Of a stretch of 58,161 nt of DNA, positions 864 to 33,117 are shown piece by piece; within the stretch, counting starts at the first letter, position 1, and every line of letters begins with the position of its first letter. Under the pieces are notes generated by a model. That model had not been told where the DNA came from. It did no database searches and saw only the letters and a program-made list of their open reading frames with translations. The position numbers and the translations under genes were made by a program. The DNA is from an uncultured Prevotellaceae bacterium (GTDB lineage Bacteria; Bacteroidota; Bacteroidia; Bacteroidales; Bacteroidaceae), in the NCBI GenBank assembly GCA_902776195.1, contig CACYPF010000010.1, forward strand, positions 1-58,161, read 5' to 3'.

Positions 864-3800
864 ATGTTATTGGACATGAAGAAAGCATTATGGTGGATAT
901 TAGGAATACTTTTGAGTCCTATTCTACTATTTTTGATTCTGACGATGCTGCTTTATTTTCCTCCTGTACAGAACTGGGCGGTAGATAAGGTGGCAGCTAT
1001 TGCATCGGATAAAACTGGAATGCAAATCACCGTCAATCATGTAGACCTTTCTTTCCCCATGGACTTGGGAATTGACGGCTTTCATATTATCCAAAAAACA
1101 GATACTATTGCTGATGTGGAACGTATGGTGGTTGATGTACAGTTATTGCCACTACTGGAAAGTAAGGTCATTATCAATACCTTAGATGTTAACAATGTAC
1201 AGTTTAACACAGCACAGTTTGTGGATGTCGCACGTGTGAAAGGGCGGTTTAAACGTCTTGCATTATCTAGCAAGGGAATAGACCTTGATAAACAGTCCAT
1301 GGAAATAAATGGAGCAAGATTGGAAGATGCCATGATAGACATTGCTCTTAAAGACAGTGTTCCAGAGGATACCACAACCTCAGACAACCGCTGGAAAATC
1401 TTTGCGGACAGTCTTCGTATTCTCCGGTCGGACGTTGTAATCCACCAGCCTGGTGACACGATGAGCATCAAGGCTCATTTTGGTCGCTTGATTGCAAAAG
1501 AAGGAGACATAGACCTTGGTATGCAGACTTATCAGATTACCTCCATAGATTGGAACAATGGCAGTCTTCAGTATGACCAGAACTATGACCCCCGTATTGA
1601 GGGGCTGGACTATAACCATATAGACCTCAGTCATATAGATATAGGGGTGGACTCTGTATATTACCATGATCCAACAGCGCGACTGGTCATGCGCTCTGTT
1701 CAATTAAAAGAGAAGAGCGGTCTGCAAGTCGTTGACCTCACAGGTTATGTAGCGATGGACAATGGTAAGATTAAGTTGCCCCAACTGCATCTGAAGACCC
1801 CCGACTCAGATGTGGAGATGGAGTTGGACATGCCTCTTTCCTTGATGGATAAAATAGCACCAGGTAAGATGCGCATGAGGATGAACGCCCAGTTGGGTAA
1901 GCAAGATCTGCTGCGTTTCTTGGGAGGGATGTCCCAGACGTTCCAACAGCGTTGGCCCAATTATCCATTGAGTGTAAAAGGTTCTGTGAATGGTAATATG
2001 GACTATATGGAGTTTGATGGACTGGATGTCTCCTTACCCACAGCATTTCATGCTACCGCTACAGGTTTTGCCGCTAATCTGACTGATCCAGAGCGGTTGC
2101 GTGCCAAGGTCGATTTTAAGGCAAGGACAGAGAACATGGGATTTGTGACGGGGATGTTGCCCAAGGACATGCAACGTAACTATCGCATTCCTCATGGAAT
2201 TACAGCCCAAGGGCTTGTCAAGGCTGATGGTGCCCACTATTTCGCTGATGTTGTAATGCATGAGGGAAAGGGTGTTGTAAAGGCAAAAGGAAACTTCAAT
2301 GCCCATGCCATGCGATATGATGCCAATATCCAAGTGCGTGATTTAAATATTCATCATTTCATGCCCAGAGACTCTGTCTATACATTCTCCGCGGATATTG
2401 CGGTAAAAGGGCAGGGGACAGACCCCTTCTCTCCCCGCACGACCCTGCAGGCTGATGCAAAGATACACCAGTTAATATATGGTACCTATAATCTGAATGA
2501 CATAACAGCAACGGCAGATATTAAGAATGGTCGTGCCTTAGCTCAAGTAACAGGTGACAACCAGCTGCTTAACGGTACCATCATCATGGATGCATTGATG
2601 AGCAAGAAAAAGATGAACGGTACTATCACTGCTGATATGTCACAGTTAGATCTGTACCATCTCCGTTTGGTTGATAAGCCCCTGACCATTGGACTTTGTG
2701 GGCATGTGGATATTAGTTCCGACCTGAACAAGACACATTATGCCAGTGGTCTTTTCTCTGATTTGACTATACGTGACTCTGTAAAAGTATACCGTCCGGA
2801 AGATTTGGGGCTGTTAATCAATCTCCGTGCTGACACTACCTATGCCCGTATCCAGAGTGGTGATTTCATTGTGAAGGTAGATGCCAGTGGACATTATGAG
2901 CATCTTCTGAGTCAGTTGACAGTGTTAAGTGACTCGGCGATGGCGCAGTATGACAAGAAAGTCATTAACCAGCCTGCTCTCCGCAGACTCCTGCCTACTA
3001 TGAGACTCCATGTGGAGAGTAAGAAAGACAATCCCATTGCAACCCTCTTGAAGAGTGGGCAGAATATAGATTTTAAAGACATGCTTATCGACCTGTCAAC
3101 CTCTCCAGAAACTGGCGTGAATGGCAATGGCTATATCCATTCCTTAGAATATGATGGGACGCGTCTGGACACGATTAATTTCCGCCTGACACAACGCAAG
3201 GAGCATCTTAGTTTTGGCGGTCAGATACGTAATAATAAACGAAATCCTCAATTTGTGTTCAATGCCCTCTTTGATGGAGTATTACAAGAGCGTGGTGCTA
3301 CCATGGGTGTTCGGTATTACGACTCTGATAATAGATTGGGAGGTCGTATTGGAGCTCAAGCTGAGATGGTGGATAGTGGCTTGAATATCCATTTGATTCC
3401 TAACCGCCCGACCTTAGGATATAAAGAGTTCGTATTGAATAGCGATAATTACATTTTCTTAGGAGCCAACAAGAAGGTCAAGGCAAAGGTTGATTTGATA
3501 GCCGATGATAAGACTGGTGTGAAAATCTATTCAGAAGAGAGCGACCCGACCGCCCAACAAGATATTACCATCAGTCTGCACCGTTTCAACTTGGGTGAGA
3601 TTACCTCTGTCCTGCCGTATGTACCCCGTATGACCGGTTTCCTGGACGGTGATTACCATGTCGTGCAGGATGCCGCAGGTCAGATATCTGTCGTGAGTGA
3701 CATGGCAGTACAGGATATGACCTACGAGAAAAGTCCGATAGGTAATGTGAGCACCGAGTTGGTTTATTTGCAGAAAGAGGGCGATGCCCATGCCGTAGAA

Positions 3801-22019: not shown

Positions 22020-22874
22020 ATGAAAGTATTCAATAAAATTGTCGATCTACAGAATCAGCTTTTTGAGGATCGCAAGAAAGGAAAAGAGATTGGTCTTGTG
22101 CCCACTATGGGGGCCTTACATGAAGGACATGCTTCACTGGTAAAACGGAGTGTGAAGGAGAATGGTGTAACAGTAGTTTCCGTCTTTGTTAACCCTACTC
22201 AGTTTAATGACAAGAACGATCTGAAGAACTATCCTCGCACATTAGAGGCAGACTGTGAGTTGTTGGAAAAATGCGGTGCGGATTATGTGCTGGCTCCTTC
22301 TGTGGAGGAGATGTATCCGACACCTGATACCCGTCAGTTTGAGTATCCTCCCGTGTCTACTGTCATGGAGGGTGCACATCGTCCCGGGCATTTCAATGGT
22401 GTCTGTCAGGTCGTTAGCCGTCTGTTCTATATCGTGAAGCCTACACGTGCTTATTTCGGTGAGAAAGACTGGCAGCAGATTGCTGTTGTGAAAGCAATGG
22501 TCCGTCATCTGGGAATAAATGTTCAGATTGTGGAGTGTGATATTATCCGTGATAAGGATGGACTTGCCAAAAGTTCACGCAACACCTTGTTGACAGATGA
22601 GGAAAGAGCCATTGCCCCCACTATCTATAAAGCATTGAAGGATAGTTTGAAATATGCTAAGAGTCACACGGTTAAGGAGACTCACGACAAGGTCGTTAAT
22701 GACATCAACAGTGTGGACGGCTTAGACGTGGAGTATTTCTCAATTGTTGATGGCAATACGTTGCAGGACGTTCAGGATTGGGAGGATTCTCCATACGTTG
22801 TTGGATGTATTACGGTTTATTGTGGTAAGACTCCTATTCGTTTAATTGATCACATTAAGTACAAGGAATCATGA
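22020..22874 (+). CDS. panC: Pantothenate synthetase (pantoate-beta-alanine ligase)
   Basis: Condenses pantoate with beta-alanine using ATP to give pantothenate, the coenzyme A precursor. The HIGH-type nucleotide-binding motif is HEGH (34-37) within [13 protein letters not shown]. 'VFVNPTQF', '[16 protein letters not shown]' and 'YFGEKDWQQ' are family signatures, and the KMSKS-like loop is KSSRNTLL. The ATG at 22020 gives 284 residues, the normal length. It overlaps panD by 4 nt, coupling synthesis of pantothenate with production of its beta-alanine substrate. The upstream region has TTATTTTG (21980-21987), one base from the -7 consensus. Confidence 0.96.
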
Positions 22875-23215
22875 TGATAGAAGTGATGAAATCCAAGCTC
22901 CATTGTGTGACGGTTACGGAAGCCAATCTCAATTATATGGGGAGCATCACCATTGACGAGGATTTGATGGATGCTGCTAACCTCATTGCCGGTGAGAAAG
23001 TGCAGGTCGTGGACAATAATAATGGAGAGCGTTTTGAGACCTATATCATCAAGGGCGAGCGGGGCAGTGGTTGTATCTGTCTGAATGGTGCCGCTGCTCG
23101 CAAGGTGTTGCCAGGTGATACCGTTATTATCATCTCCTATGCTTTGATGGATTTTGAGGAGGCTAAGACGTTCCAGCCTACTGTCGTGTTCCCTAAAGCA
23201 GGTAACAGTCTGTAG
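22871..23215 (+). CDS. panD: Aspartate 1-decarboxylase (pyruvoyl enzyme precursor)
   Basis: Makes beta-alanine from aspartate for PanC. It is a 114-residue proenzyme that cleaves itself at Gly24-Ser25 (NYMGSITID), Ser25 becoming the pyruvoyl cofactor. Lys9 and the motif LNGAAAR, which stabilise the active site in the family, are present. The start is at ATGATG overlapping the panC stop, so either 22871 or 22874 could be used. The downstream gap carries the 22-bp repeat array. Confidence 0.96.
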
Positions 23216-23319
23216 CAGAATAGAAACCTTACTTTCATTGGTCGACTTAGGCTCAGCCGCTCGTTAGGATGCTTTTAACGATTGAAAACCAAGGGACTTC
23301 TCAATGATAACAAAGGCTT

Positions 23320-23423
23320 TAATCGGTTGTCGACTCCAGTCGACAAGGCTGCTGACTCCAGTCGACAAGGCTACTGACTCCAGTCGACAAGGTAGCTGAC
23401 TCTAAGTCAACAGGTAGGCTGAC
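23320..23423 (+). repeat. Four-unit array of a 22-bp palindromic repeat (copy A)
   Basis: After the leader TAATCGGTTG (23320-23329) come units starting at 23332, 23354, 23376 and 23398, each beginning GACTC; the first three are GACTCCAGTCGACAAGG plus a variable 5-mer. The last unit is a variant, GACTCTAAGTCAACAGG, one base longer. Unit 1 is the centre of a 20-bp perfect palindrome, TTGTCGACT/CC/AGTCGACAA. The array lies in the 277-bp gap between convergent panD and the biotin-carrier gene. A degenerate inverted copy of the last unit lies at 23241-23258. Confidence 0.85.
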
Positions 23424-23492
23424 GGGATGTTCTTTTGAAAGAAAAAAGAGGATGCAAACGCATCCTCTTATCTTATTGTCACGTCAAGACGT

Positions 23493-23924
23493 TTACTCAA
23501 TGACAACCAGTGGGTCGTCTTCCATGACGGTCTGACCAGGCTTTACACAGATGGCAGTAATCTTACCGTCTTTCTCAGCCTCGATATTATTAGCCATTTT
23601 CATAGCTTCCAATACAACTACGGTGTCGCCAGCCTTCACCTCGTCGCCTTCATTGACACAAATCTCAGTAATCACACCAGGCAGTGGAGCCTTAACAGCA
23701 TTGTTGCTATTTACTTTGGCAGAAGATCCTGCTTCTGTACTTCCGGTACTTTCCACAGCGACAGGCTTACGTACAACGACCTTTTTCTCCTCTGCTGGCT
23801 CAGGTTCCATTTCAACCTTATACTCCTCACCGTTGACAGTCACGGTTGCAGTGTTCTCTATGATATCACCAATGGCGACTTCATATTTGTTGCCATTGAT
23901 AGTATACTTATACTCTTTCTTCAT
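23493..23924 (-). CDS. Biotin carboxyl carrier protein of a decarboxylase/carboxylase complex
   Basis: The 143-residue biotinyl subunit that carries CO2 between active sites. The C-terminal lipoyl/biotinyl domain (about 75-143) has the biotinylation motif EAMKM with target Lys109. An N-terminal module (1-40, 'YKYTINGNKYEVAIGDI') is typical of the gamma subunit of methylmalonyl-CoA or oxaloacetate decarboxylases. A Pro/Glu/Ala-rich flexible linker spans 40-75. It is the last gene of the mce-mmdA operon. Confidence 0.92.
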   Translation of the reverse strand: MKKEYKYTINGNKYEVAIGDIIENTATVTVNGEEYKVEMEPEPAEEKKVVVRKPVAVESTGSTEAGSSAKVNSNNAVKAPLPGVITEICVNEGDEVKAGDTVVVLEAMKMANNIEAEKDGKITAICVKPGQTVMEDDPLVVIE

Positions 23925-23936
23925 AACGATTTCTTT

Positions 23937-24086
23937 TTATGGATGTTCGGTCATAGTCTGAGCATATCCATTCCATTGAGTATGCTTCTCCAGAATAGTG
24001 ATGATTCCAGGCTCCTTGTCGTGGACATTGTTGCCCTTGAACTCATGAAGAGCCAGAGCTATGGCTGCATAAATTTCGTTCTTCAT
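23937..24086 (-). CDS. 49-residue protein between mmdA and the biotin carrier gene
   Basis: Reads MKNEIYAAIALALHEFKGNN then VHDKEPGIITILEKHTQWNG and ends TMTEHP. The pattern A-IA-AL-E--G--VHD-E-GIITI---W-----M resembles the soluble C-terminal tail of OadG-like subunits of sodium-pump decarboxylases in Bacteroidota. The transmembrane helix that normally precedes this tail is absent. It starts 53 nt after mmdA and ends 12 nt before the carrier gene, which strongly suggests a real small subunit. The likely role is as an assembly or docking piece of the carboxyltransferase complex, by inference from position. Confidence 0.72.
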   Translation of the reverse strand: MKNEIYAAIALALHEFKGNNVHDKEPGIITILEKHTQWNGYAQTMTEHP

Positions 24087-24139
24087 AACTACTTTGTTTA
24101 GAGGGAGTCCTGAATACTACATTCAGAACTCCTATTTAT

Positions 24140-25705
24140 TTACATCGGGATGTTACCATGTTTCTTCGCAGGCAAAGCATCACGCTTGGTGGCAAGCTGC
24201 GCCAGTGCGCGACAGATGCGGAAACGCGTATTGCGTGGTTCTATGACATCGTCGATATAGCCGTACTTGGCTGCTTGATATGGATTGGCAAAGAGTTCGT
24301 TGTACTCTTCCTCTTTCTCTGCGATAAATGCCTTTACATCTTCTCCTGCCTCCTTCTTTGCCTTTGCTTCCTTTGCATAGAGCACTGCAGCGGCACCTGA
24401 GGCACCCATCACAGCAATCTCCGCAGAGGGCCATGCGTAGTTGAGGTCGGTATGCAGCTGCTTAGAACCCATCACAATGTGAGAGCCACCGTATGACTTA
24501 CGCAGGGTAACTGTAATTTTGGGAACGGTAGCTTCTCCGTATGCATACAGCAACTGGGCACCATGCAGGATGACAGCGTTGTACTCCTGACCTGTACCAG
24601 GAAGGAATCCTGGTACGTCAACCAAAGATATAATAGGAATATTGAAGGCATCGCAGAAACGGACGAAACGGGCACCCTTACGAGATGCGTTTACATCAAG
24701 TACACCGGCATAGCAAGAAGGCTGGTTGGCAACGATACCTACGCTCTGACCATTGAAACGGGCAAAACCTACGATGATGTTCTTGGCAAACTTAGGCTGT
24801 ACCTCGAAGAACTCATTATCGTCAACGATGGCACTGATAACCTTATACATGTCATATGCCTCGTTGGGATTCTCAGGAATAATCTCATTCAGGGAATCCT
24901 CCAAGCGGTCGATGGGGTCTGTGCACTGCTTGCGTGGAGCCAGTTCCATGTTGTTAGAAGGAATGTAGCTTAACAGGGTTTTCAGCATCTCCACAGCTTC
25001 TTCCTCAGTTTTAGCAGTAAAGTGAGTGACACCGCTTTTAGAAGCATGAACACTTGCACCACCCAGATGTTCCTGATCGATATCTTCACCAGTAACGGTC
25101 TTTACTACTTTTGGACCTGTCAAGAACATGTATGACGTACCCTCCATCATAAGGGTGAAGTCTGTGAGGGCAGGGGAGTATACAGCTCCACCAGCACATG
25201 GACCGAAGATACCGGAAATCTGGGGTATCACACCAGAAGCGAGGATGTTACGTTCGAAAATTTCAGCATACCCAGCAAGTGCGTTGATTCCTTCCTGAAT
25301 ACGGGCACCGCCAGAGTCGTTAATACCAATAACGGGGGCTCCCATCTTCATTGCCATATCCATCACCTTACAAATCTTTTGGCTCATAGTCTCAGAAAGA
25401 GAACCGGCATGTACGGTGAAATCTTGGGCGAAAATAAAAACCAGACGACCATCAATCGTACCACTACCAGCCACAACACCATCACCAAGGAACTGCTTTT
25501 TCTCCATACCAAAGTTATGGCAACGGTGCTCCTTGAACATGTCGTATTCTTCAAATGAGCCTTTGTCGAGCAACATTTCAATTCGTTCACGTGCTGTGTA
25601 TTTACCTTTGTCATGCTGTTTTTGAATAGCTTTCTCACCACCACCGAGGCGAGCTTGTTCGCGCTTCTCAATCAGCTGCTTGATTTTCTCTAATTGTTTT
25701 GACAT
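24140..25705 (-). CDS. mmdA: Acyl-CoA carboxyltransferase (methylmalonyl-CoA decarboxylase alpha / propionyl-CoA carboxylase beta)
   Basis: A 521-residue biotin-dependent carboxyltransferase that moves CO2 between methylmalonyl-CoA and biotin in succinate-propionate metabolism. It has the crotonase-like double fold of the family. '[19 protein letters not shown]' and '[16 protein letters not shown]' form the N-domain acyl-CoA oxyanion region. '[28 protein letters not shown]' and '[13 protein letters not shown]' form the C-domain. Its neighbours, methylmalonyl-CoA epimerase and a biotin carrier, support methylmalonyl-CoA as substrate. No biotin carboxylase or OadB sodium-pump subunit is nearby, so direction and coupling cannot be decided here. 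Confidence 0.93.
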
Positions 25706-25727
25706 AATTTATTTCTTTTCCTATATA

Positions 25728-26132
25728 TTAATGTTCGCAAAGTTCTGTCAGCACACCTGCTGTTGATTTCGGATGCAGGAAAGCAATGTTCAGGTTCTCT
25801 GCACCTTTACGAGGTTTCTCGTCAATCAGACGAACCCCTTTCTCGCTAACCTCTGCAAGAGCATTAGTTACACCATCCTCAATGCAGAATGCAACATGGT
25901 GCACACCCTTGTTGCCTTTGTCAATCCATTTCTGGATTGTGCTCTCAGGAGACGTAGGCTCCAATAGTTCGAGTTTAACCTCACCACACTTCAAGAAGGC
26001 GGTCTTAACTTTCTGATCCTCTACCGTCTCAACGGCATAACACTTCAAGCCTAAAACATTCTCAAAGAATGGAAGGCTTTCTTCAATGCTCTGGACAGCT
26101 ATGCCCAGATGCTCAATGTGTGAAATTTTCAT
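25728..26132 (-). CDS. mce: Methylmalonyl-CoA epimerase
   Basis: Interconverts (R)- and (S)-methylmalonyl-CoA between the B12-dependent mutase and the carboxyltransferase. It is a VOC/glyoxalase-fold protein of 134 residues, the normal size. Metal-ligand candidates are His8 (IEHLGIAV), the His pair in GVHHVAFCI and the Glu in VKLELLEPT, and the C-terminal 'FLHPKSTAGVLTELCEH' is a family signature. It is the first gene of the operon with mmdA 22 nt downstream. Confidence 0.94.
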   Translation of the reverse strand: MKISHIEHLGIAVQSIEESLPFFENVLGLKCYAVETVEDQKVKTAFLKCGEVKLELLEPTSPESTIQKWIDKGNKGVHHVAFCIEDGVTNALAEVSEKGVRLIDEKPRKGAENLNIAFLHPKSTAGVLTELCEH

Positions 26133-26166
26133 ATTGTAAAAAATTGAGTTTTATCTTACTAAGATG

Positions 26167-26174
26167 CAAAGGTA
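26167..26174 (-). promoter_or_regulatory. -7 box for the mce-mmdA operon
   Basis: The minus strand reads TACCTTTG, a perfect TAnnTTTG, 35 nt upstream of the mce start. No TTTG lies at the usual distance. Confidence 0.5.
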
Positions 26175-26222
26175 CAACTTTTAATTGAAAACAGTGCATC
26201 TGGTGTTGATAATTAACGCTAA

Positions 26223-28604
26223 TTAAAACTCAACTATCACTTTTCCGTTAATTTGCCTGCCAGTAAGATAGTTAGGTACAGCATATTGCTGGCTGGTCAC
26301 GTCAGTTACCCAATAATAGCTGTTGACATTCGATATTCCAAAGATATTGAGTCCTTCCACACTGAGCCAGATGCGGCGCAGGCCGAAATTGCTACGTTGT
26401 TCATTTTGGTAGGCAAGGAAACTCATTCCGATATCGGCACGTTTATACGCTGGAGCGCGGAATTGCTGATATTCTAGTCCGCGGTGTGGGGCACCGAAAG
26501 GTAGTCCGTCGGCTATGGCAAGGCGCAATGTCATCTTCCAACGTTCAGTACCTGGGAAATAGTCTGTGAAATGCAAATTGACGCCCCATCGCTGATCTGT
26601 AGGCATCGGGATACTGACACCATTGATTTTCTGACGGGTACTCATAATGGAGAAGGTCAACCATGAGTCTGTGCCTGGTACAAACTCCCCATAGAGCTTC
26701 AGGTCCAGTCCGGCAGCATAGCCTTTTGCGAGGTTCTCGCCATAGTACACGACCTTCATGTTCTGTACATTATACGGGATGAGATTGTTCATAATCTTAT
26801 AGTAAGCCTCTGCCGTAAAGCGGAAAGGACGGTTTGCCATGCGGAAGCGATAGTCAAAAGCACCTACAATATGGATAGACCGTTGACTTTTAATATCATT
26901 ATTCAAGGTTACGATTGTTCTTCCGTTAATTGTTGTCGTGTCACGCAGTTCTTTATAGAATGGAGCCTGATAGTAAAGTCCTGTAGAGAGACGGAAAGTC
27001 ATATTCTCATTGAAGCCAGGTATCATCGCCAGCGACACACGCGGAGAAATAATCGTTTCTTTATTATAGTTCCAGTTGGCTAGTCTGACTCCCATGTTCA
27101 GCGTCCACAGGTTAGGTCTCTCAGCGTTACCGGTCTGGAACCGGTAAGTATCTTGCATATAAGCCTCCAGTCTTGTAGAAGACATTTTCTGTTTCGAGGC
27201 AAGAGAGTAGATCATGTCCAAACGCTTTCCTGTATGAGGAATACTGTATCCACTGGAGTCACGCATTTCATATTCTCTGGCGTTCTCCTCAATCTCTTCC
27301 CATTTCATCGTCAGACCACCTTCTATGTCATGTCGCTTAGCCTTGTGGTTGACTGTCAGTTTCGCACTTGCCACATTAGCGGTGAGGTAGTTGCGTGCAT
27401 GCTCCATATAGGTTCCAACCCCTAGATTCTCAGATGTCTGTGTGTCATCCAGCCAGTATTGTCCTTGAATGTCGTATGTCTCCTGTTCTTTGGTATGGAA
27501 GGCTGCGGCTTGTAATTTCACATGTGTTTTCTCTGTAGGGTGATAGGTAATAGACGCCGTACCGAACAAGGTGCGGAAGATGTCCTTCTCTTGTCCGTCG
27601 AAATAAACCTTAAAAGATTTTACGTCCTGCATGGTACCAAAGGATGTCTCACGGTCGCTCGGTGAGAAATTGTAGTGATTCTCCGATATATTTCCAATCA
27701 GCTCTAAGTCCCATCGCTTATTGGGGCTCCATGTGATATAGGTCTGATAATCGAGGAAATTAGGTCTGTACTCTCCTTTCGTCTCTAAGGACCCTAATAA
27801 GTAGCGGTTTGTTTTATAACGCACACCATGGCTCATGGAAAATTTCTTGTTGCCATAACCCACAAACACACTGCCTCCTAGAAGCGAAGCCTGTATGTTA
27901 CCTTCTAATCGGGTAGGCTTGCGGTACTGGATATCCAAGGCACTAGACATCTTGTCTCCGTATTTCGCTTCAAAGCCACCAGACGAAAACCCGATTTTCT
28001 CTACCATGTCGCTGTTGATGACTGACAGTCCTTCTTGTTGACCACTGCGGATGAGCAGGGGACGATATACCTCCGTTCCATTGATATAGACCGAGTTTTC
28101 GTCGAAAGACCCACCGCGCACATTATATTGGCTTGACAACTCGTTATGAGTCGATACGCCGGCCTGTTGCTGTACCAATTCCTCTACGGCATTACCTGTT
28201 GTCGAGGGAGTATTTCTTAGGTTTTTGGCATCCAGCTGATCTGTGCCAGTTGTCTGTCTGCGTTTCTCTGTCACTACCACTTCGTCGAGTTCTTTCATGG
28301 GATATAATGTGACAAGTAATCGTTGCTTACCTTTTGGATTATGGAGCACACGGGTGCGAGTCTGAAAACCCACCATTGAGAATTTTACAACTACCGAATC
28401 TGCTGATTTCAGATTCAGTGAATATTCACCTTTGAGGTTTGCGACGGTCACTGCACCTTGGTCCAGGCAGCTCACAGTGGCAAGTTCAATGGCATTGCCT
28501 TCTTCATCACTTATAACACCTGAAAGTGTAAACGATTGTGCATGCAATATCATGCTACCGAAGAGTAGCATATATAATGTCAGAATATGAAATTGTCGAC
28601 TCAT
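26223..28604 (-). CDS. TonB-dependent outer-membrane receptor with carboxypeptidase-like N-domain
   Basis: A 793-residue TonB-dependent transporter. A signal peptide (MSRQFHILTLYMLLFGSMIL, cleaved after HAQ) is followed by a carboxypeptidase-regulatory-like beta domain ('FTLSGVISDEEGNAIELATVSC'). Then come a TonB box-like ELDEVVVTE, the plug domain ('NTPSTTGNAVEELVQQQAGVSTHNELSSQYNVRGGSFDENSVYING') and a 22-strand barrel ending in KVIVEF. The substrate is unknown; no SusD partner is present, so glycan import of the Sus type is unlikely. The frame extends upstream to 28664 only through a non-ATG start, so I chose the ATG before the signal peptide. It is downstream of the GNAT-like gene on the same strand. 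Confidence 0.88.
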   Translation of the reverse strand: MSRQFHILTLYMLLFGSMILHAQSFTLSGVISDEEGNAIELATVSCLDQGAVTVANLKGEYSLNLKSADSVVVKFSMVGFQTRTRVLHNPKGKQRLLVTLYPMKELDEVVVTEKRRQTTGTDQLDAKNLRNTPSTTGNAVEELVQQQAGVSTHNELSSQYNVRGGSFDENSVYINGTEVYRPLLIRSGQQEGLSVINSDMVEKIGFSSGGFEAKYGDKMSSALDIQYRKPTRLEGNIQASLLGGSVFVGYGNKKFSMSHGVRYKTNRYLLGSLETKGEYRPNFLDYQTYITWSPNKRWDLELIGNISENHYNFSPSDRETSFGTMQDVKSFKVYFDGQEKDIFRTLFGTASITYHPTEKTHVKLQAAAFHTKEQETYDIQGQYWLDDTQTSENLGVGTYMEHARNYLTANVASAKLTVNHKAKRHDIEGGLTMKWEEIEENAREYEMRDSSGYSIPHTGKRLDMIYSLASKQKMSSTRLEAYMQDTYRFQTGNAERPNLWTLNMGVRLANWNYNKETIISPRVSLAMIPGFNENMTFRLSTGLYYQAPFYKELRDTTTINGRTIVTLNNDIKSQRSIHIVGAFDYRFRMANRPFRFTAEAYYKIMNNLIPYNVQNMKVVYYGENLAKGYAAGLDLKLYGEFVPGTDSWLTFSIMSTRQKINGVSIPMPTDQRWGVNLHFTDYFPGTERWKMTLRLAIADGLPFGAPHRGLEYQQFRAPAYKRADIGMSFLAYQNEQRSNFGLRRIWLSVEGLNIFGISNVNSYYWVTDVTSQQYAVPNYLTGRQINGKVIVEF

Positions 28605-28638
28605 ACTCTTATAACGGAAAAAAAAGGGAATTATTACA

Positions 28639-29619
28639 TTACTCCCTCCACCACCATGAAGCAAGGGCGTTAACCCAGCGTATGCTGATGCGGAACCAGC
28701 GGAATGCCGTCACTTCTTTACCTCCGAAGCTGAGAATAAAGTCACGGTACGGATTACGTCTGAACGGCAGTCCTACGTCCACGAAGCGGAAATGTTGCAT
28801 TCCCTCGGTGTGAGCGTGTTTCATGGCATTCCATATAGTGGTGGCATTAGGATGTAGCATGGCAAAACTCTTTCTTCTGGATGCGGAATACCAGAAATAC
28901 ATATCACCGTCAGAATGGACACAGGCGCAGCAGCCTATAACCCTCTCGTGGTATTTCGTGATAAACAAGCGGCATCGCTGGCTGTCCATCATCCCTCGGA
29001 AGAAGTCGTCAACAGGAAGGTAGCGTCGTGGTTTTAACCAATTATGTCGACGTAACAGTTTGGAGAATTCCCTAAACTCCTCGTCTGTTTCCACTATTTT
29101 GGTGATAGCACCGCGCTCCCGCGCTGCTTCAATATGTTTCATCTGTCGTTCTGTGATACGTTCCTCCGGGGTATGGGAATGCAGTGAATTGTGAATGTTC
29201 ATCCATTTCACGTGGAAAAACCCCATGCGTCTTAGTTCTTTATAGCCGAACATCTTCTGAGAGAAATGACTGAACTCAATATATAATGCTTTGTTCTGCA
29301 TCCGTTCCGTGATGGCCTCTGCCATCAGCCCGAACAATTGTTGTTCGTTGTGTTCCTCGTCTTTGAGATGATAGACACCTTCGCTCATCACCCTGACATT
29401 TATATATATATAAGGTGGAAGCCACGACCTTCTGTAATAGATGAGGGCAAGCATGTGAGCCGCCACTTCACCGTTCTGTGTCACCACAGCCATCAATGGT
29501 TTTTGGCGAGGTGTACGCTCACAGAGTTCCATTAGTTCAGGACTATGGAAATAGTTGCCTTCAGGAATGTCCGGCAACTCTTTGGCATGCTCATAGATGG
29601 TTACTTTCAGCTCTCTCAT
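28639..29619 (-). CDS. GNAT/FemAB-like acyltransferase
   Basis: A 326-residue protein with two GNAT-like halves of the Acetyltransf_6/FemAB type. 'GNYFHSPELMELCERTP' is at the N-terminus, as in FemAB-like proteins. 'ITKYHERVIGCCACVHSDGDMYFWYSASRRKSFAMLHPNATTIWNAMKHAHTEGMQHFRFVDVG' has the typical second-half pattern of strand-turn-strand followed by a long helix. It has no signal peptide or membrane helix. The substrate is unknown; peptidoglycan or surface-lipid modification is a guess from the family. It sits immediately upstream of the TonB receptor gene. Confidence 0.72.
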   Translation of the reverse strand: MRELKVTIYEHAKELPDIPEGNYFHSPELMELCERTPRQKPLMAVVTQNGEVAAHMLALIYYRRSWLPPYIYINVRVMSEGVYHLKDEEHNEQQLFGLMAEAITERMQNKALYIEFSHFSQKMFGYKELRRMGFFHVKWMNIHNSLHSHTPEERITERQMKHIEAARERGAITKIVETDEEFREFSKLLRRHNWLKPRRYLPVDDFFRGMMDSQRCRLFITKYHERVIGCCACVHSDGDMYFWYSASRRKSFAMLHPNATTIWNAMKHAHTEGMQHFRFVDVGLPFRRNPYRDFILSFGGKEVTAFRWFRISIRWVNALASWWWRE

Positions 29620-29661
29620 GGGGTGTAAAGATACAAAGTTTATAGATAAAAACCAAATTTA

Positions 29662-29693
29662 TTTGTGAATTTCATCAGAAATACTTATATTTG
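29662..29693 (+). promoter_or_regulatory. Perfect Bacteroidota promoter for the SH3-domain gene
   Basis: TTTG (29662-29665), exactly 20 nt, then TATATTTG (29686-29693). The predicted transcription start is near 29699, giving a leader of about 22 nt to the ATG at 29722. Confidence 0.8.
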
Positions 29694-29721
29694 CAATGTC
29701 AAACATCAATCTTAAACGCTT

Positions 29722-30219
29722 ATGAAACGAATATTCTTTTCCTTTTGTCTGTTTTTTGTAAGTATTACTCTATGGTCGCAGAATGAGTTGATTGTGTGTT
29801 ATGCAGTCTCCGATGATGGCTTTCTGAATGTACGTGCCGAGCCTTCTAGTAAGGCTGACGTGTTGACGACACTGCCTATGATGTTCCATGGGTTAGGACG
29901 TGGCATACTGTTGGAGTATGGTAAGCGGTGGAGTAAGGTCAGAGTTGAGAATACTGTAGGCTGGGTATATACCAAATATATGGGTACTCAAGGATGGTAT
30001 ACACATAATGGCAAGCCCCGTCTGGTCGCTAAGAAAGAGATCACGTCCTTATATACCGATAATTATGCCGATGAAGGTCCCAAATATATTCCCTATGGGT
30101 TCGTGGAGAAAGGTATTGTCATCGCCGATGAGTATGAGCTGTTGAAAGACGGCTATTACGTTCTCAAGACAGGGCATGATTATCTTTTTATTAATAAGGA
30201 TGATGTCATCGTGGAATAA
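29722..30219 (+). CDS. Secreted bacterial SH3-domain protein
   Basis: A 165-residue exported protein. The signal peptide is MKRIFFSFCLFFVSITLWSQ. A bacterial SH3 (SH3b) domain follows at about 25-92: 'DGFLNVRAEPSSKADVLTTLPMMFHGLG...WSKVRVENTVGWVYTKYMG'. Such domains usually bind peptidoglycan or cell-wall peptides. The C-terminal 70 residues ('YVLKTGHDYLFINKDDVIVE') have no motif I recognise. No enzyme domain is attached. Its end overlaps the convergent sugar-kinase gene by 14 nt. Confidence 0.83.
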   Translation: MKRIFFSFCLFFVSITLWSQNELIVCYAVSDDGFLNVRAEPSSKADVLTTLPMMFHGLGRGILLEYGKRWSKVRVENTVGWVYTKYMGTQGWYTHNGKPRLVAKKEITSLYTDNYADEGPKYIPYGFVEKGIVIADEYELLKDGYYVLKTGHDYLFINKDDVIVE

Positions 30220-31255
30220 ATTCACCCAGTACTTCCTCCATGGTATCCAGCACTTCCTGCTCTGTCAGTAGGTTGAAGTCTCCCATGATGGTGTTTTTCA
30301 TGGCAGAGGCTGTCAGTGCGTAGTTCAGATGTTTCTGGTGCTCACCATGCCAGCGGAAGTGGGCATGCAGATAGGCGGCGATAAAAGCATCACCGACACC
30401 TATCGGGTCCAGTACGGGATTGATGTCTACAATACCGGTGTGGTATAGTTTCCCTTCCGCATAGAGCATTCCTGTCAATAGGTGATGGCTGGCAGACACG
30501 ACATGGCGGATGCCCATGATGAAGTACCTTCCTTTAGGTAGCATCTCCTGAGTACGTTCGAAATATTTCCTGTAAGCCTCCACGTCTAACTCAAACGATG
30601 TGTCCTTAGGGTCAAAGGGTGGAGGAGTCATTCCTGTAATGAGTTTCCATTCTCCTGTGTCTCCAAAAATGATATGACTTGCTTTGAGAGCGGGCAGCAG
30701 CACGTCACGGGCTTCTTGTCCGTATTTCCATAAGTTCTTTCGGTAATTGATGTCGCAAGAGATATACATACCTTTCCGTAATGCCTCGTCCAATCCGTCA
30801 AAAGTAGCGTCACTGGCTCCCTCCGACAGTCCGCAGGTAATGCCTGTCCAATGGAACACGTCTGCGTCTTTCAGGATATCCTTCCAGTCAAGCATGTGGG
30901 GATGTAGTGTCATCATCGATGAGTGTTCTCTATCGTATGCGATACTGGAGCCACGGAGCGACGCAGCCTGCTCATAGAAATATTTTCCTACCCGTGACCC
31001 TCCCCAGATGATATGATTTGTGCCTACCTGGTAGCGTCGCAATTCATTACGGCATGACACGCCCAGCATGTTATTCGGGAGGCGCGTCACATACTCTACG
31101 TCATCTCCCATCATGGCAAGTGATACGGCAACATTCGACTCACTGCCTCCATAGAAGCCATCTATCTTGTTTCCCTGTATGATACGTTGGTAGTCTGGTC
31201 GGGTCATGCGTAGCATGATCTCGCCCATCGTTACAAACTTTGTCTTTTTCTCCAT
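30206..31255 (-). CDS. kdgK: PfkB-family sugar kinase, probably 2-keto-3-deoxygluconate kinase
   Basis: A 349-residue ribokinase-fold enzyme. The N-terminus MGEIMLRMTRP, followed by the GGSESNVAVSLAMMG glycine-rich region, matches KDG kinases. The C-terminal PfkB signature is DPIGVGDAFIAAYL, with the catalytic Asp in GVGD, where the canonical sequence is GAGD. KDG kinase phosphorylates 2-keto-3-deoxygluconate from uronate (pectin) breakdown; no uronate genes are adjacent and the partner aldolase is not next to it. The alternative is a related sugar kinase of the same family. Confidence 0.8.
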   Translation of the reverse strand: MEKKTKFVTMGEIMLRMTRPDYQRIIQGNKIDGFYGGSESNVAVSLAMMGDDVEYVTRLPNNMLGVSCRNELRRYQVGTNHIIWGGSRVGKYFYEQAASLRGSSIAYDREHSSMMTLHPHMLDWKDILKDADVFHWTGITCGLSEGASDATFDGLDEALRKGMYISCDINYRKNLWKYGQEARDVLLPALKASHIIFGDTGEWKLITGMTPPPFDPKDTSFELDVEAYRKYFERTQEMLPKGRYFIMGIRHVVSASHHLLTGMLYAEGKLYHTGIVDINPVLDPIGVGDAFIAAYLHAHFRWHGEHQKHLNYALTASAMKNTIMGDFNLLTEQEVLDTMEEVLGEFIPR

Positions 31256-31281
31256 TCTTCTCGCTTCTTAATCTGACTTTG

Positions 31282-31313
31282 CAAATTTAGTAAAATCCTC
31301 GCATACAGCCAAA
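31282..31313 (-). promoter_or_regulatory. Perfect Bacteroidota promoter for the sugar kinase
   Basis: On the minus strand, TTTG (31313-31310), 20 nt, then TAAATTTG (31289-31282). The predicted start is near 31276, about 21 nt before the ATG. Confidence 0.8.
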
Positions 31314-31350
31314 TCTATCGCATTTTTTCTCTTTATTAAAAAAAATGTTG

Positions 31351-31358
31351 TATCTTTG
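31351..31358 (+). promoter_or_regulatory. -7 box for the TrmH-family gene
   Basis: TATCTTTG is a perfect TAnnTTTG. The position expected for -33 reads TTCT, so the upstream box is weak. Transcription would begin around 31364-31365, which decides against the GTG at 31364 as start codon unless the mRNA is leaderless. Confidence 0.55.
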
Positions 31359-31375
31359 CGGACGTGAATAAGCAA

Positions 31376-32149
31376 ATGATATCGAGTACTCATAATCCGG
31401 GAATCAAACAATTGTTGCTCTTACAGCAGAAATCCTCGGAACGTCGCAAACAGGGTGTGTTTGTGGTGGAGGGACAACGTGAGTTTCAGCATTGTCTGGA
31501 GGGGGGCTGCGAGGTGGTGACCCGTTTCATCTGTCCTGCGTTGTATCAGGACGAAGTGCCTGGTGATGCTGTCCTCGTGACTCCAGCCGTTTATGAGAAA
31601 ATTGCTTATCGGGGAACGACCGAAGGCATCGTGGCGATTGTCCGTACCCAGTCGAAAACATTGGATGACTTGCAGTTGCCGACTCACCCGTTGCTGATGA
31701 TATTGGAGAAGGTCGAGAAGCCTGGTAACCTGGGTGCCATCCTTCGATCTGCCGATGCCGCCAAAGCTGATGCGGTCATCGTCTGCGATCCCTTGACCGA
31801 CCTTTACAATCCCAATCTGATACGCAGCAGCATTGGTGCCGTTTTTACAGTCCCAACTGTCGCTTGTTCTTCAGAGGAATGCATCCGTTTCCTGCAAGAG
31901 CGTAACATCCAGATCCTGACTGCTCAGTTGCAGGACTCCAGTCTTTATTACGACCAGGACATGCGGAGAGGTACAGCCATAGTCATGGGCACAGAGGCTA
32001 CCGGACTGACCGATCAGTGGCGTGAGGCTGCAACTGCCCATATCCGCATCCCGATGTTGGGCAGACTCGACTCCTTGAATGTCAGCGTCTCTGCCGCCAT
32101 CTTATTATTTGAGGCAGTCCGCCAGCGAACCGGTGCTCATACTTTATAA
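31376..32149 (+). CDS. TrmH/SpoU-family RNA 2'-O-methyltransferase
   Basis: A SPOUT-class enzyme that methylates ribose 2'-OH in rRNA or tRNA using S-adenosylmethionine. The N-terminal substrate-binding domain (about 1-95) has 'RRKQGVFVVEGQREFQHCL'. The catalytic domain has the three SPOUT motifs: EKVEKPGNLGAILRSADAA, VMGTEATGL and IPMLGRLDSLNVSVSAAILLFE. I chose the ATG at 31376 (257 residues) because the predicted transcript starts at about the GTG at 31364. The target nucleotide cannot be inferred. The 167-bp gap downstream carries repeat array B. Confidence 0.88.
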   Translation: MISSTHNPGIKQLLLLQQKSSERRKQGVFVVEGQREFQHCLEGGCEVVTRFICPALYQDEVPGDAVLVTPAVYEKIAYRGTTEGIVAIVRTQSKTLDDLQLPTHPLLMILEKVEKPGNLGAILRSADAAKADAVIVCDPLTDLYNPNLIRSSIGAVFTVPTVACSSEECIRFLQERNIQILTAQLQDSSLYYDQDMRRGTAIVMGTEATGLTDQWREAATAHIRIPMLGRLDSLNVSVSAAILLFEAVRQRTGAHTL

Positions 32150-32278
32150 TCCCTGTGACTCCACTTCCACGAGACAGGTTCTTGGCGATAATTTTGATTG
32201 CATACTTGCTTACTTGCAGTTGTATGTGTCAGTGTAAGCGATGTGAAGTGCCATCCTTCGCAGGTGTTAGAATCATCC

Positions 32279-32372
32279 TAATCGGTTGCTGACTCCAGTC
32301 AACAGGTCTGCTGACTCTAGTCAACAAGCTTTTTGACTCCAGTCAACCGACTTTTTGACTCTAAGTCAACCA
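32279..32372 (+). repeat. Four-unit array of the 22-bp palindromic repeat (copy B)
   Basis: The leader TAATCGGTTG (32279-32288) is identical to copy A. Units start at exactly 22-bp spacing: 32291, 32313, 32335 and 32357. They read GACTCCAGTCAAC, GACTCTAGTCAAC, GACTCCAGTCAAC and finally the variant GACTCTAAGTCAAC, the same variant last unit as in copy A. The palindrome TTGACT-CC-AGTCAA centres unit 3. The array overlaps the 3' end of the minus-strand EFR1 gene; its stop codon lies in unit 2. As in copy A, the flanking genes are convergent. Confidence 0.85.
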
Positions 32373-33117
32373 TCACATACTGTCCTCTTTTCATCTTACC
32401 CCAATGGATGGCATGCTTAGGACAGTGGTGATAACAGGCAAGACAGTTTGTGCAGGAACCGTCGTGTTTCCATTGGGGTGGGGTACCTTCGATGTCATCT
32501 ACAGGACAGAGTTTGGCACATAAGCCACACTGGATACATGCCTCGTTATCCACCCAGAAATGCTGGTCGGTGATAAGGTGCTTGTTGTAATAGCCGCCGA
32601 TGACATAAGTATATGTGTATGGAATCGCTCCCTTGACGAGTTCCTCCACACCACATTGACGGTCGGTGACCACCTGGCAGATATGCTGCATACGCAGTCT
32701 TGCCGCTTCAATCTTCTGACGTTCACGTTCAGGGGTATCCAGATGCAGAAAAGAAAAGCAGACATTTGACTCGGGCATCACCACGGCGAAGGTCGCGTCG
32801 GTATGGAGTCCTTGTCGCCCTAACTCCTTATTGAAGATACGCATGGCATGTCCCATATTGTCACCACAGGTCGTCAATGCATAAATATAAGAGGTGGAGC
32901 GGAATGTCGCCTTGCGGATAAACTCACGTACGATGCGAGGCGGTTGCCAACCATGAGTAGGAAAGCAGAATCCCAGCCGTTCCCCTTCCTGTAGACAATA
33001 TTCGCAAGAGTCCTTTTTTAGCTCCTCAGGAATATAAAGCAACTGCTCACCCGTCGACCGAGCTAGTTGTTCTGCCGCCCATTTGGTATTTCCTGTTCCG
33101 GTAAAATAAAAGATCAT
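32317..33117 (-). CDS. EFR1-type flavodoxin/ferredoxin protein
   Basis: A 266-residue fusion of an N-terminal flavodoxin-like domain (FMN phosphate loop YFTGTGNTKWAAEQLA at 4-19) with a C-terminal 2x[4Fe-4S] ferredoxin. The cysteine motifs are CIQCGLCAKLCP and CTNCLACYHHCP. It is a cytoplasmic one-electron carrier of anaerobes whose partners are unknown. The last 17 residues, from VDLESKSRLTG onward, are encoded entirely by the repeat array, and the TAG stop is formed by a base change in repeat unit 2. The natural C-terminus before the insertion was probably close to 'KMKRGQYVMV'. It overlaps the sensor-like gene upstream by 4 nt. Confidence 0.88.
   Translation of the reverse strand: MIFYFTGTGNTKWAAEQLARSTGEQLLYIPEELKKDSCEYCLQEGERLGFCFPTHGWQPPRIVREFIRKATFRSTSYIYALTTCGDNMGHAMRIFNKELGRQGLHTDATFAVVMPESNVCFSFLHLDTPERERQKIEAARLRMQHICQVVTDRQCGVEELVKGAIPYTYTYVIGGYYNKHLITDQHFWVDNEACIQCGLCAKLCPVDDIEGTPPQWKHDGSCTNCLACYHHCPKHAIHWGKMKRGQYVMVDLESKSRLTGVKKLVD

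What the first reader, a model, noticed from the sequence alone, without database searches (positions are those of the whole stretch)
23320..32372. A dispersed four-unit palindromic repeat array with conserved ends, in two convergent intergenic gaps
Arrays at 23320-23423 and 32279-32372 share the leader TAATCGGTTG, the same 2-nt gap before the first GACTC, a period of 22 bp (exact in copy B; 22, 22, 22, 23 in copy A), four units, and a last unit with the same extra base (GACTCTAAGTCAAC). The repeats are palindromic (TTGACT-CC-AGTCAA, or TTGTCGACT-CC-AGTCGACAA). The within-array differences (GTCGAC in A, GTCAAC in B) run through three units of A together, as expected of copies that homogenise within each array. 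Such defined boundaries make this an element, not random satellite. Both copies sit where two genes converge, as REP/BIME elements do in enteric bacteria. I know of no described element with this unit. Role as terminator, gyrase or protein site, or a transposase-mobilised REP-like element is open.
Basis: partly seen in the sequence, partly recalled or inferred. Interest (0 to 1): 0.78.

Follow-up and report, generated by a model that had tools for sequence, protein, structure and literature searches.

The report
Phased 22-bp repeat arrays in Prevotella
The two short repeat clusters are copies of a dispersed, non-coding DNA element found in rumen Prevotella, one of many unrelated-looking arrays in this genus that share a strict 22-base rhythm and often sit just upstream of genes for HU-type DNA-binding proteins, so they are probably protein landing strips rather than random repeats.

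Summary
The arrays are real. The own genome has 7 such arrays (unit pattern: 18 hits, reversed control 0); another 70 rows come from other genomes, mostly rumen Prevotella.

The element is about 180 bp: a second 22-bp repeat, a leader, then usually four units. One copy is absent from an otherwise 95-98% identical locus. Array B has overwritten the end of its neighbour gene. No REP transposase fits, no Rfam family, and hairpin co-variation is not supported.

The larger finding is a class. In sampled intergenic DNA of the genus, 22 bp is the commonest tandem period, with unrelated units; sampled sister families have none. Such arrays lie within 300 bp upstream of 28 of 69 genes matching HU-HIG (PF18291), against 9 of 737 control genes; after merging relatives 14 of 37, p = 1e-14. 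In this genome a second, more numerous family has one array directly upstream of an HU-HIG gene.

Best reading: phased binding-site arrays for HU-like proteins, dispersed like REP or MITE elements. The window family's own protein was not found.

The parts
23332..23411 (+). array A: four 22-bp B units (GACTCC-AGTCGAC type; last unit GACTCTAAGTCAAC)
23310..23331 (+). leader of array A (ACAAAGGCTTTAATCGGTTGTC)
23285..23309 (-). A-type 22-bp-period repeat of copy A, in inverted orientation
   Evidence: sequence; compare L063, L086, L102, L112
23240..23284 (-). remnant of an opposite-facing leader plus one degenerate B unit, i.e. B'-A-B symmetry
   Evidence: read by eye; the same symmetry is complete in L063, L086, L102
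23216..23437 (.). stretch absent from the 95-98% identical panD/biotin-carrier locus of genome G035
32291..32370 (+). array B: four 22-bp B units (GTCAAC type; last unit GACTCTAAGTCAAC)
32266..32290 (+). leader of array B (GTTAGAATCATCCTAATCGGTTGCT)
32210..32265 (+). A-type 22-bp-period repeat preceding array B
32317..33117 (-). 4Fe-4S (flavodoxin-like by eye) gene whose last codons and stop lie inside array B
22871..23215 (+). panD (aspartate decarboxylase), left neighbour of copy A
23493..23924 (-). biotin carrier protein gene, right neighbour of copy A; a terminator-like hairpin is at 23446-23469
31364..32149 (+). SpoU-type RNA methyltransferase, left neighbour of copy B

Best explanation
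The window holds two copies of a dispersed non-coding element (family 1) built on a 22-bp grid: A units, a leader, and usually four B units with a palindromic core. Family 1 belongs to a genus-wide class of 22-bp-phased arrays. The class most likely consists of double-stranded DNA binding-site arrays for HU-HIG proteins (HU domain fused to wHTH, Ig or Gly-rich parts, by the Pfam description): dimers bind each site, and the two-turn phasing puts them on one face so that they assemble into a nucleoprotein patch. Copies spread and settle mainly beyond stop codons, where they act as architectural or insulating sites and perhaps as junctions for rearrangement. SHOWN: copies, anatomy, period, presence/absence, array B at the end of the 4Fe-4S gene, position bias, statistical link of the class to sites upstream of HU-HIG genes. 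INFERRED: that HU-HIG proteins bind the arrays, that dimers sit in phase, how copies move, and what dispersed copies do. NOT FOUND: the protein that would bind family 1.
For: Period: among 59 intergenic tandem arrays (lags 8-45) in 40 stretches of other genus members, lag 22 is the commonest (16), then 23 (6); own genome 5 of 10; sister families 0 of 8; composition shuffles gave no arrays. Units look unrelated between arrays. Upstream of HU-HIG genes: 28 of 69 against 9 of 737 control genes, odds ratio 55, p = 2.7e-25; downstream no excess, 1 of 69 against 21 of 737. After clustering the 69 genes by similarity, 14 of 37 clusters (first member) still have one, p = 1.4e-14. A second batch, scored by distance to the domain centre: 7 of 26 in the genus. 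14 of 28 upstream arrays have a palindromic consensus at p<=0.05. PF18291 matches number 2-30 per listed genus genome and 1-6 in 18 of 19 sister-family genomes, 17 in G183. In the own genome the best PF18291 gene (C28) has a family-2 array 39 bp upstream of its called start, and family 2 has 92 + 92 strand hits genome-wide, control 0. Stem positions of family 1 show no energetic co-adaptation, which points to double-stranded DNA.
Against: No HU-HIG gene with a GACTC array upstream was found in the 110 HU-HIG loci scanned, which include four of the own genome; the copy beside an HU-HIG gene (C4 and counterparts) lies after its stop, not upstream. Many HU-HIG genes lack a detectable array: 41 of 69, 19 of 26, and in G183, whose matches are among the strongest, 12 of 14. 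PF18291 also rings in 9 of 14 control genomes, so weak matches may be ordinary HU. Half of the HU-HIG-linked arrays are not significantly palindromic, and the palindrome excess of the class over other lags is weak (11 of 33 against 3 of 23, p = 0.08). Arrays near two other own-genome HU-HIG genes (L422, L423) had no second copy in the own-genome loci held; only family 2 shows both an HU-HIG gene and dispersal. Orthologous genes inflate raw counts. No binding data.
Confidence: 0.5

Rival explanations
1. A REP/BIME- or MITE-like mobile repeat family with no dedicated host protein: copies are moved in trans by an unidentified transposase and are tolerated beyond stop codons.
For: Dispersed copies; a panD/biotin-carrier site without the element in G035; array B at the end of the 4Fe-4S gene in two genomes, against four orthologues that end without it; convergent bias. 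A leader and short tandem units resemble BrickBuilt of P. gingivalis (PMC4596501: abstract and passages seen).
Against: No common terminal inverted repeat or target duplication was recognised by eye; no Y1 transposase in 10 of 14 carriers. It does not explain why unrelated families share the 22-bp period or why arrays sit upstream of HU-HIG genes.
Confidence: 0.25
2. RNA element: tandem hairpins in 3' untranslated regions acting as terminators or mRNA stabilisers.
For: Array B folds far better than shuffles as RNA on both strands (z -4.9 and -5.0); 30 of 50 genes that point at the B end stop within -9 to +38 nt of it. A-C cells slightly exceed every shuffle (0.193 against a maximum of 0.189), as G-U pairing on the other strand would give.
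Against: Array A is not significant (z -1.2, -1.5). Own half-arrays pair no better than swapped ones (z -0.37, +0.83) and single units likewise (z 0.88, 0.14); Watson-Crick cells are within the shuffles. No terminator is called inside either array, and copy A lies beyond a terminator-like hairpin of its right neighbour. No Rfam match. A fixed 22-bp period has no obvious reason in RNA.
Confidence: 0.1
3. Ends of a minimal Tn7- or Mu-like transposon: these have several ~22-bp transposase sites per end (recalled).
For: 22-bp units, usually four; B'-A-B copies with two outward-facing B arrays (L063, L086, L102).
Against: Units are palindromic; most copies show a B array on one side only. Neither terminal TG..CA nor a TnsB/MuA-type gene was searched for.
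Confidence: 0.08
4. Neutral minisatellite generated by slippage.
For: Unit number varies from 1 to 5 between copies.
Against: Leader, four-unit mode and period are kept across species; composition-shuffled sequence has no such arrays; strong placement upstream of HU-HIG genes.
Confidence: 0.05

Closest known systems
REP/BIME palindromic repeats (GTAG- and CGTC-tagged; PMC3733652, passages seen)
   Same: Short palindromes, dispersed, extragenic, mostly beyond coding regions; CGTC REPs also lack a dedicated transposase
   Different: No GTAG or CGTC tag seen at the unit ends of family 1; tandem on a 22-bp grid with leader and second repeat; no Y1 transposase in 10 of 14 carriers
BrickBuilt MITE of Porphyromonas gingivalis (PMC4596501, abstract and passages seen)
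   Same: Bacteroidota, intergenic, tandem short repeats (23 nt) between a leader and a tail
   Different: BrickBuilt has terminal inverted repeats and up to 18 full repeats in one copy; ours has 22-bp palindromic units, usually four, a second phased repeat, and no recognised terminal inverted repeat
Plasmid iterons (recalled)
   Same: Direct repeats about two helical turns apart bound by an initiator protein next to its gene
   Different: Here the arrays are chromosomal and dispersed, and the linked genes are HU-HIG, not Rep
REPtrons (RAYT gene flanked by its REPs; PMC3733652, passages)
   Same: A protein gene with its repeat family beside it and further copies elsewhere (own-genome family 2 and its HU-HIG gene)
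   Different: The protein is an HU-type DNA binder, not a Y1 transposase; the array is upstream only
HU-HIG, Pfam PF18291 (Pfam description seen; I recall a 2017 survey of HU/IHF clades that named it, not seen here)
   Same: The class of arrays lies upstream of these genes
   Different: No cognate tandem sites for HU-HIG turned up in the listings; 'hu-hig' had 0 occurrences in the ten papers listed (of 271 found)

Membership tests
REP / RAYT-mobilised repeats | GTAG (or CGTC) tag at one end of the palindrome | tested here: not met
   No such tag seen by eye in the units or at their ends; tags from PMC3733652
REP / RAYT-mobilised repeats | RAYT (Y1_Tnp, PF01797) in the genome | tested here: not met
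   0 in own genome, G035, G150, G151; 4 of 14 array-bearing genomes have any, among them the family-1 carriers G153 and G160. CGTC REPs are also reported without one, so this excludes only the RAYT type
REP / BIME | Many dispersed extragenic palindromic copies near gene 3' ends | tested here: met
MITE | Terminal inverted repeats and target-site duplication | tested here: inconclusive
   Neither was recognised by eye at full and empty sites; no formal search was made
MITE | Presence/absence at orthologous sites | tested here: met
   panD/biotin-carrier gap in G035; C22 copy absent in G157
Structured RNA | Compensatory base-pair change | tested here: not met
   a faint A-C excess is the only sign for it
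22-bp-phased HU-HIG-linked array class (proposed) | 22-bp period with palindromic core | tested here: met
22-bp-phased HU-HIG-linked array class (proposed) | Array of the same family upstream of an HU-HIG gene | tested here: not met
   Met for own-genome family 2; for family 1 none among the 110 HU-HIG loci scanned for GACTC arrays; not all HU-HIG genes of the carriers were fetched
22-bp-phased HU-HIG-linked array class (proposed) | Binding by the HU-HIG protein | not testable with these tools
   Needs EMSA or DAP-seq
BrickBuilt | 23-nt unit with BrickBuilt terminal inverted repeats | tested here: not met
   Unit is 22 bp; the BrickBuilt terminal repeat printed was not seen by eye in the aligned copies

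The most novel reading that the evidence does not exclude
Prevotella carries an expanded family of HU-type proteins, many with a private DNA code: a 22-bp-phased array, often of palindromic sites, upstream of the gene. At least one code is copied to tens of places in the genome. Together these would be several parallel, sequence-addressed chromatin-like systems in one bacterium. The window arrays are sites of one such system whose protein is not yet known.
Probability: 0.35. Interest if true: 0.88.

Novelty: new variant of a known kind. Interest (0 to 1): 0.75.

Why it matters
HU proteins are usually regarded as sequence-neutral DNA benders. A genus in which HU-fusion genes have multiplied, many with a distinct phased array upstream and at least one with matching arrays scattered over the chromosome, would offer a direct handle on how sequence-specific bacterial chromatin evolves. 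It would also give a role to a large share of intergenic tandem repeats in major gut and rumen bacteria. The window's own family shows such elements settling at gene ends and perhaps at places where gene order changes.

Tried and rejected
RAYT/REP (PF01797 search): not supported. Rfam on 10 loci at E up to 1: nothing. Hairpin co-variation within units and between half-arrays: not supported. Viral contigs with the two-unit pattern: no hit. Clean target-site duplication from full/empty pairs: not obtained; the G157 and G035 versions of the C22 gap differ by more than one event, and G035 has a different array type there (GGCTCCAGCC/GGCTATAGCC units behind a related leader). Exactly four units as a law: rejected; copies with 1, 2, 3 and 5 units exist, and the set was picked by two adjacent units. 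Convergent placement as a rule for all families: rejected; family 2 in the own genome is 19 co-directional, 4 divergent, 3 convergent of 26, and over all lag-22/23/44 arrays the convergent share (13 of 33) is not clearly above that of other-lag arrays (6 of 31, p = 0.07). Arrays less conserved than flanks: only 4 of 12 pairs. The HU-HIG gene beside the C4 copy as the cognate of family 1: not supported; the upstream regions of the three loci reached before the script stopped (L001, L060, L088) have neither a GACTC unit nor a 22-bp array. Synteny test (counted by hand): element gaps keep both flanks adjacent in 1 of 9, control gaps in 8 of 11 (p = 0.0098). Of 18 G150 elements 11 were entered and 2 of those had no flank found; one of the 9 (L065) is at a contig end; 3 of 14 controls had no flank found. 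Other adjacent pairs are known outside the test (L107/L347; L064/L068). Controls were co-directional or divergent, with mostly shorter gaps, so this is only suggestive.
Full report
WHAT IS IN THE WINDOW. Array A lies in the gap between panD (22871-23215, +) and a biotin carrier gene (23493-23924, -); array B lies between a SpoU-type methyltransferase gene (31364-32149, +) and a 4Fe-4S gene (32317-33117, -). Each has four units with GACTC starts exactly 22 bp apart. The lag-22 signal is unique: 66 window positions pass 70% identity at lag 22, none at lags 15-21 or 23-30.

COPIES IN THE OWN GENOME. The pattern GACTCYAGTCRAC has 18 hits in 2.97 Mb and none for the reversed control, in 7 arrays on contigs C4, C6, C7, C10 (two), C14 and C22. 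TAATCGGTTG alone is not diagnostic (6 hits, control 5).

COPIES ELSEWHERE. One scan of the species-genome collection for two adjacent units gave 90 stretches, mostly rumen Prevotella genomes (RGIG3792, RGIG4438, RUG11506, RUG037, tf2-5, UBA2755, UBA4339 and others), with unlike sets in a Verrucomicrobia MAG (UBA3214), in Xylanibacter brevis ATCC 19188 and in two other Prevotellaceae MAGs (SRR873608_bin.26, RUG13095). In a sample of the window's own genus (150 genomes including itself) 15 have the unit pattern at all, and besides the own genome only G035 and G110 show adjacent units. Viral contigs: none.

ANATOMY. In 60 aligned copies homology starts about 89 bp before the first B unit: left end near RATGCCATCC, A units (AAGTGCCGTTGTAATCGATGTG type) in the same 22-bp register, the leader GTTRSAAGCATCCTAATCGGTTG, then the B units, ending about CAGGT. 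In the selected set 63 of 77 rows read as four units, 9 as three (L001 and L070 visibly have a fourth), 5 as five. Three loci have two outward-facing B arrays around one A repeat (L063, L086, L102), and array A of the window keeps a one-unit remnant of that second arm. Of 30 loci from a leader search, 23 have an array, 4 do not and 3 were undetermined; units number 1 to 5, and four loci carry a sister type with GGCTCCAGCC/GGCTATAGCC units.

INSERTION. G035 has the panD/biotin-carrier locus at 98% and 95% identity without 23216-23437. Ten further genus members with an intact convergent pair show no family-1 element there, several with other repeats instead (for the three gaps longer than 330 bp only the first 330 were printed, but those genomes lack the unit pattern altogether). 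UBA2755 (L112) has it, so G035 may have lost it. The 4Fe-4S protein ends in GQYV plus 3 to 11 residues in four orthologues without the array, but reads on into the array in the window and in L058/L182 (one contig). G157 lacks the C22 copy.

PLACEMENT. With a simple codon-usage gene caller, of 77 main rows (7 from the own genome; 12 Verrucomicrobia loci, unlike sets, duplicates and arrays under three units left out; three double elements counted twice, orthologues kept) the gene on the B side points at the array in 50 of the 74 with a called gene, and in 30 of those 50 its stop is -9 to +38 nt from the array end. Convergent to divergent is 22 to 5, against 44 to 82 for intergenic gaps of at least 120 bp in sampled stretches (p = 1e-5).

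NOT A HAIRPIN FAMILY. Positions next to the core vary as Y or R largely independently: Watson-Crick 0.612 observed, 0.594 after shuffling partners, maximum 0.624; A-C cells, 0.193, slightly exceed the shuffle maximum of 0.189. Own half-arrays pair no better than swapped halves, and single units no better than swapped arms, on either strand. Array B folds well (z about -5) but array A does not (z -1.2 and -1.5). Rfam has nothing for the 10 loci given.

THE CLASS. In 40 stretches (up to 20 kb) from other genus members (92.7 kb intergenic) there are 59 tandem arrays with lags 8-45; lag 22 leads with 16, then lag 23 with 6, lags 44 and 14 with 5 each. In 20 own-genome stretches 5 of 10 arrays have lag 22. 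In 20 stretches from 15 sister-family genomes (40.4 kb) none of 8 does. Composition-shuffled sequence gives no arrays. Units look unrelated, for example TTATACACGTCTGTATAATTGG, GTATCATTAGGGTGATACTGGA, CAAAATCATAGGTTTTGGAGCT. Of 33 arrays with lag 22, 23 or 44 in called gaps, 11 have a palindromic consensus at p<=0.05, against 3 of 23 with other lags of at least 12 (p = 0.08); 13 of 33 are convergent against 44 of 319 gaps (p = 6e-4) but 6 of 31 other-lag arrays (p = 0.07). The own genome has a second family, GTAAWTCAAWTTGATTTAC: 92 hits on each strand with up to one mismatch (the unit is nearly self-complementary), control 0. Of 26 such loci examined, 13 have four units, 10 three, and one each five, six and one; spacing is always 22, with a leader and tail of its own kind.

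THE HU-HIG LINK. The gene before the family-1 copy at own-genome C4 has counterparts in L060, L088, L091 and L095; the L088 protein, the only one scanned, is HU-HIG (PF18291, E 1e-12). That led to a search for the family in 40 chosen genomes: 2-30 matches in each listed genus member, 1-6 in sister families except G183 with 17. The model also rings in 9 of 14 control genomes, so weak matches may be plain HU. I then fetched HU-HIG loci. In the first 70 (30 returned by the tool, 40 chosen mostly from the top of the list, before their arrays were known), 30 have a lag-22/23/44 array nearby, against 52 of 600 random 3.4-kb windows (p = 4e-12). Oriented on the gene, 28 of 69 (one had no callable gene; 13 were called by longest frame) have the array within 300 bp upstream of the start and 1 of 69 within 300 bp downstream; control genes 9 and 21 of 737 (p = 2.7e-25 upstream, no excess downstream). 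Clustered by similarity the 69 make 37 groups, of which 18 have an upstream array in any member and 14 in the first (p = 1.4e-14). Nine of those loci are not named in the listing (L396-L404) and have none. A further batch, scored by distance to the domain centre, gave 7 of 26 in the genus (mostly weaker matches; p = 2e-7 against the 9 of 737, though the two criteria differ) and 2 of 14 in G183, whose matches are strong. Fourteen of the 28 upstream arrays are palindromic at p<=0.05. One cluster (L383, L387, L388, L421) has arrays in all four members, family 2 in the first two and another unit in the others. In the own genome the best HU-HIG gene (C28, L383) has a family-2 array 39 bp upstream of its called start, with a likely TATCTTTG promoter element (motif recalled) between array and gene. 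Arrays near two other own-genome HU-HIG genes (L422, L423) had no second copy in the own-genome loci held.

WHAT FOLLOWS. The class is best read as phased double-stranded binding arrays of HU-HIG proteins. Two helical turns of spacing and often palindromic cores fit dimers side by side. For family 1 this is by analogy: none of the 110 HU-HIG loci scanned has a GACTC array, and the three C4-type loci read had no array upstream.

REARRANGEMENT. Between G150 and G151, element gaps kept both flanks adjacent in 1 of 9 cases with a flank found, control gaps in 8 of 11. L345 keeps part of the A repeat, the leader and the last unit beside a different left gene. The controls were not convergent, so this is only a hint.

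LITERATURE. The listings showed no description of a 22-bp array class in Prevotella nor of cognate arrays for HU-HIG; the library holds open-licence papers only, and each listing shows only the best-ranked papers. PMC4596501 (abstract and passages), PMC3733652 and PMC5771137 (passages) were looked at; the rest only as search listings.

Noticed in passing
L034, L036, L039, L045, L059, L069, L074, L079, L082, L083, L098, L114: A Verrucomicrobia MAG (UBA3214) has 22-bp-period arrays with the same GACTCCAGTC core but 4-10 units and unrelated flanks; transfer or convergence is unresolved.
   Followed up: no
L037, L042, L043, L049, L050, L053, L080, L085: One Prevotellaceae MAG (SRR873608_bin.26) has a sister set with GACTTAAGTCAATAG units and its own flanks; six of the eight loci read as four units, two as two units at a contig end.
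   Followed up: partly
L071, L095, L110: The sequence GTAGTTTAACGATTTTAGTTGACTACTTGTAGTC (or its complement) lies beside elements in three loci of one genome; it looks like another small repeat or insertion end.
   Followed up: no
L055, L026, L047 and many G151 places: A further dispersed repeat, GTGAGGAGGCTG with about 21-bp period, lies right after several B arrays.
   Followed up: no
window 32317-33117: The 4Fe-4S protein gains an array-encoded tail of about 17 residues in place of its native end.
   Followed up: yes
L046: A contig labelled Clostridia (Rumen_Coassembly_mag_626) carries a Prevotella-type element and is probably binning contamination.
   Followed up: no
L225 (G016:C1:1300001-1320000), 2753-3445: 41-bp tandem repeats in another genus member; 41-nt repeats are also reported in P. 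gingivalis (PMC4596501, passage).
   Followed up: no
L375, L470, L482 (G183): A genome of another family with 17 PF18291 matches also has 22-bp arrays upstream of a few of these genes.
   Followed up: partly
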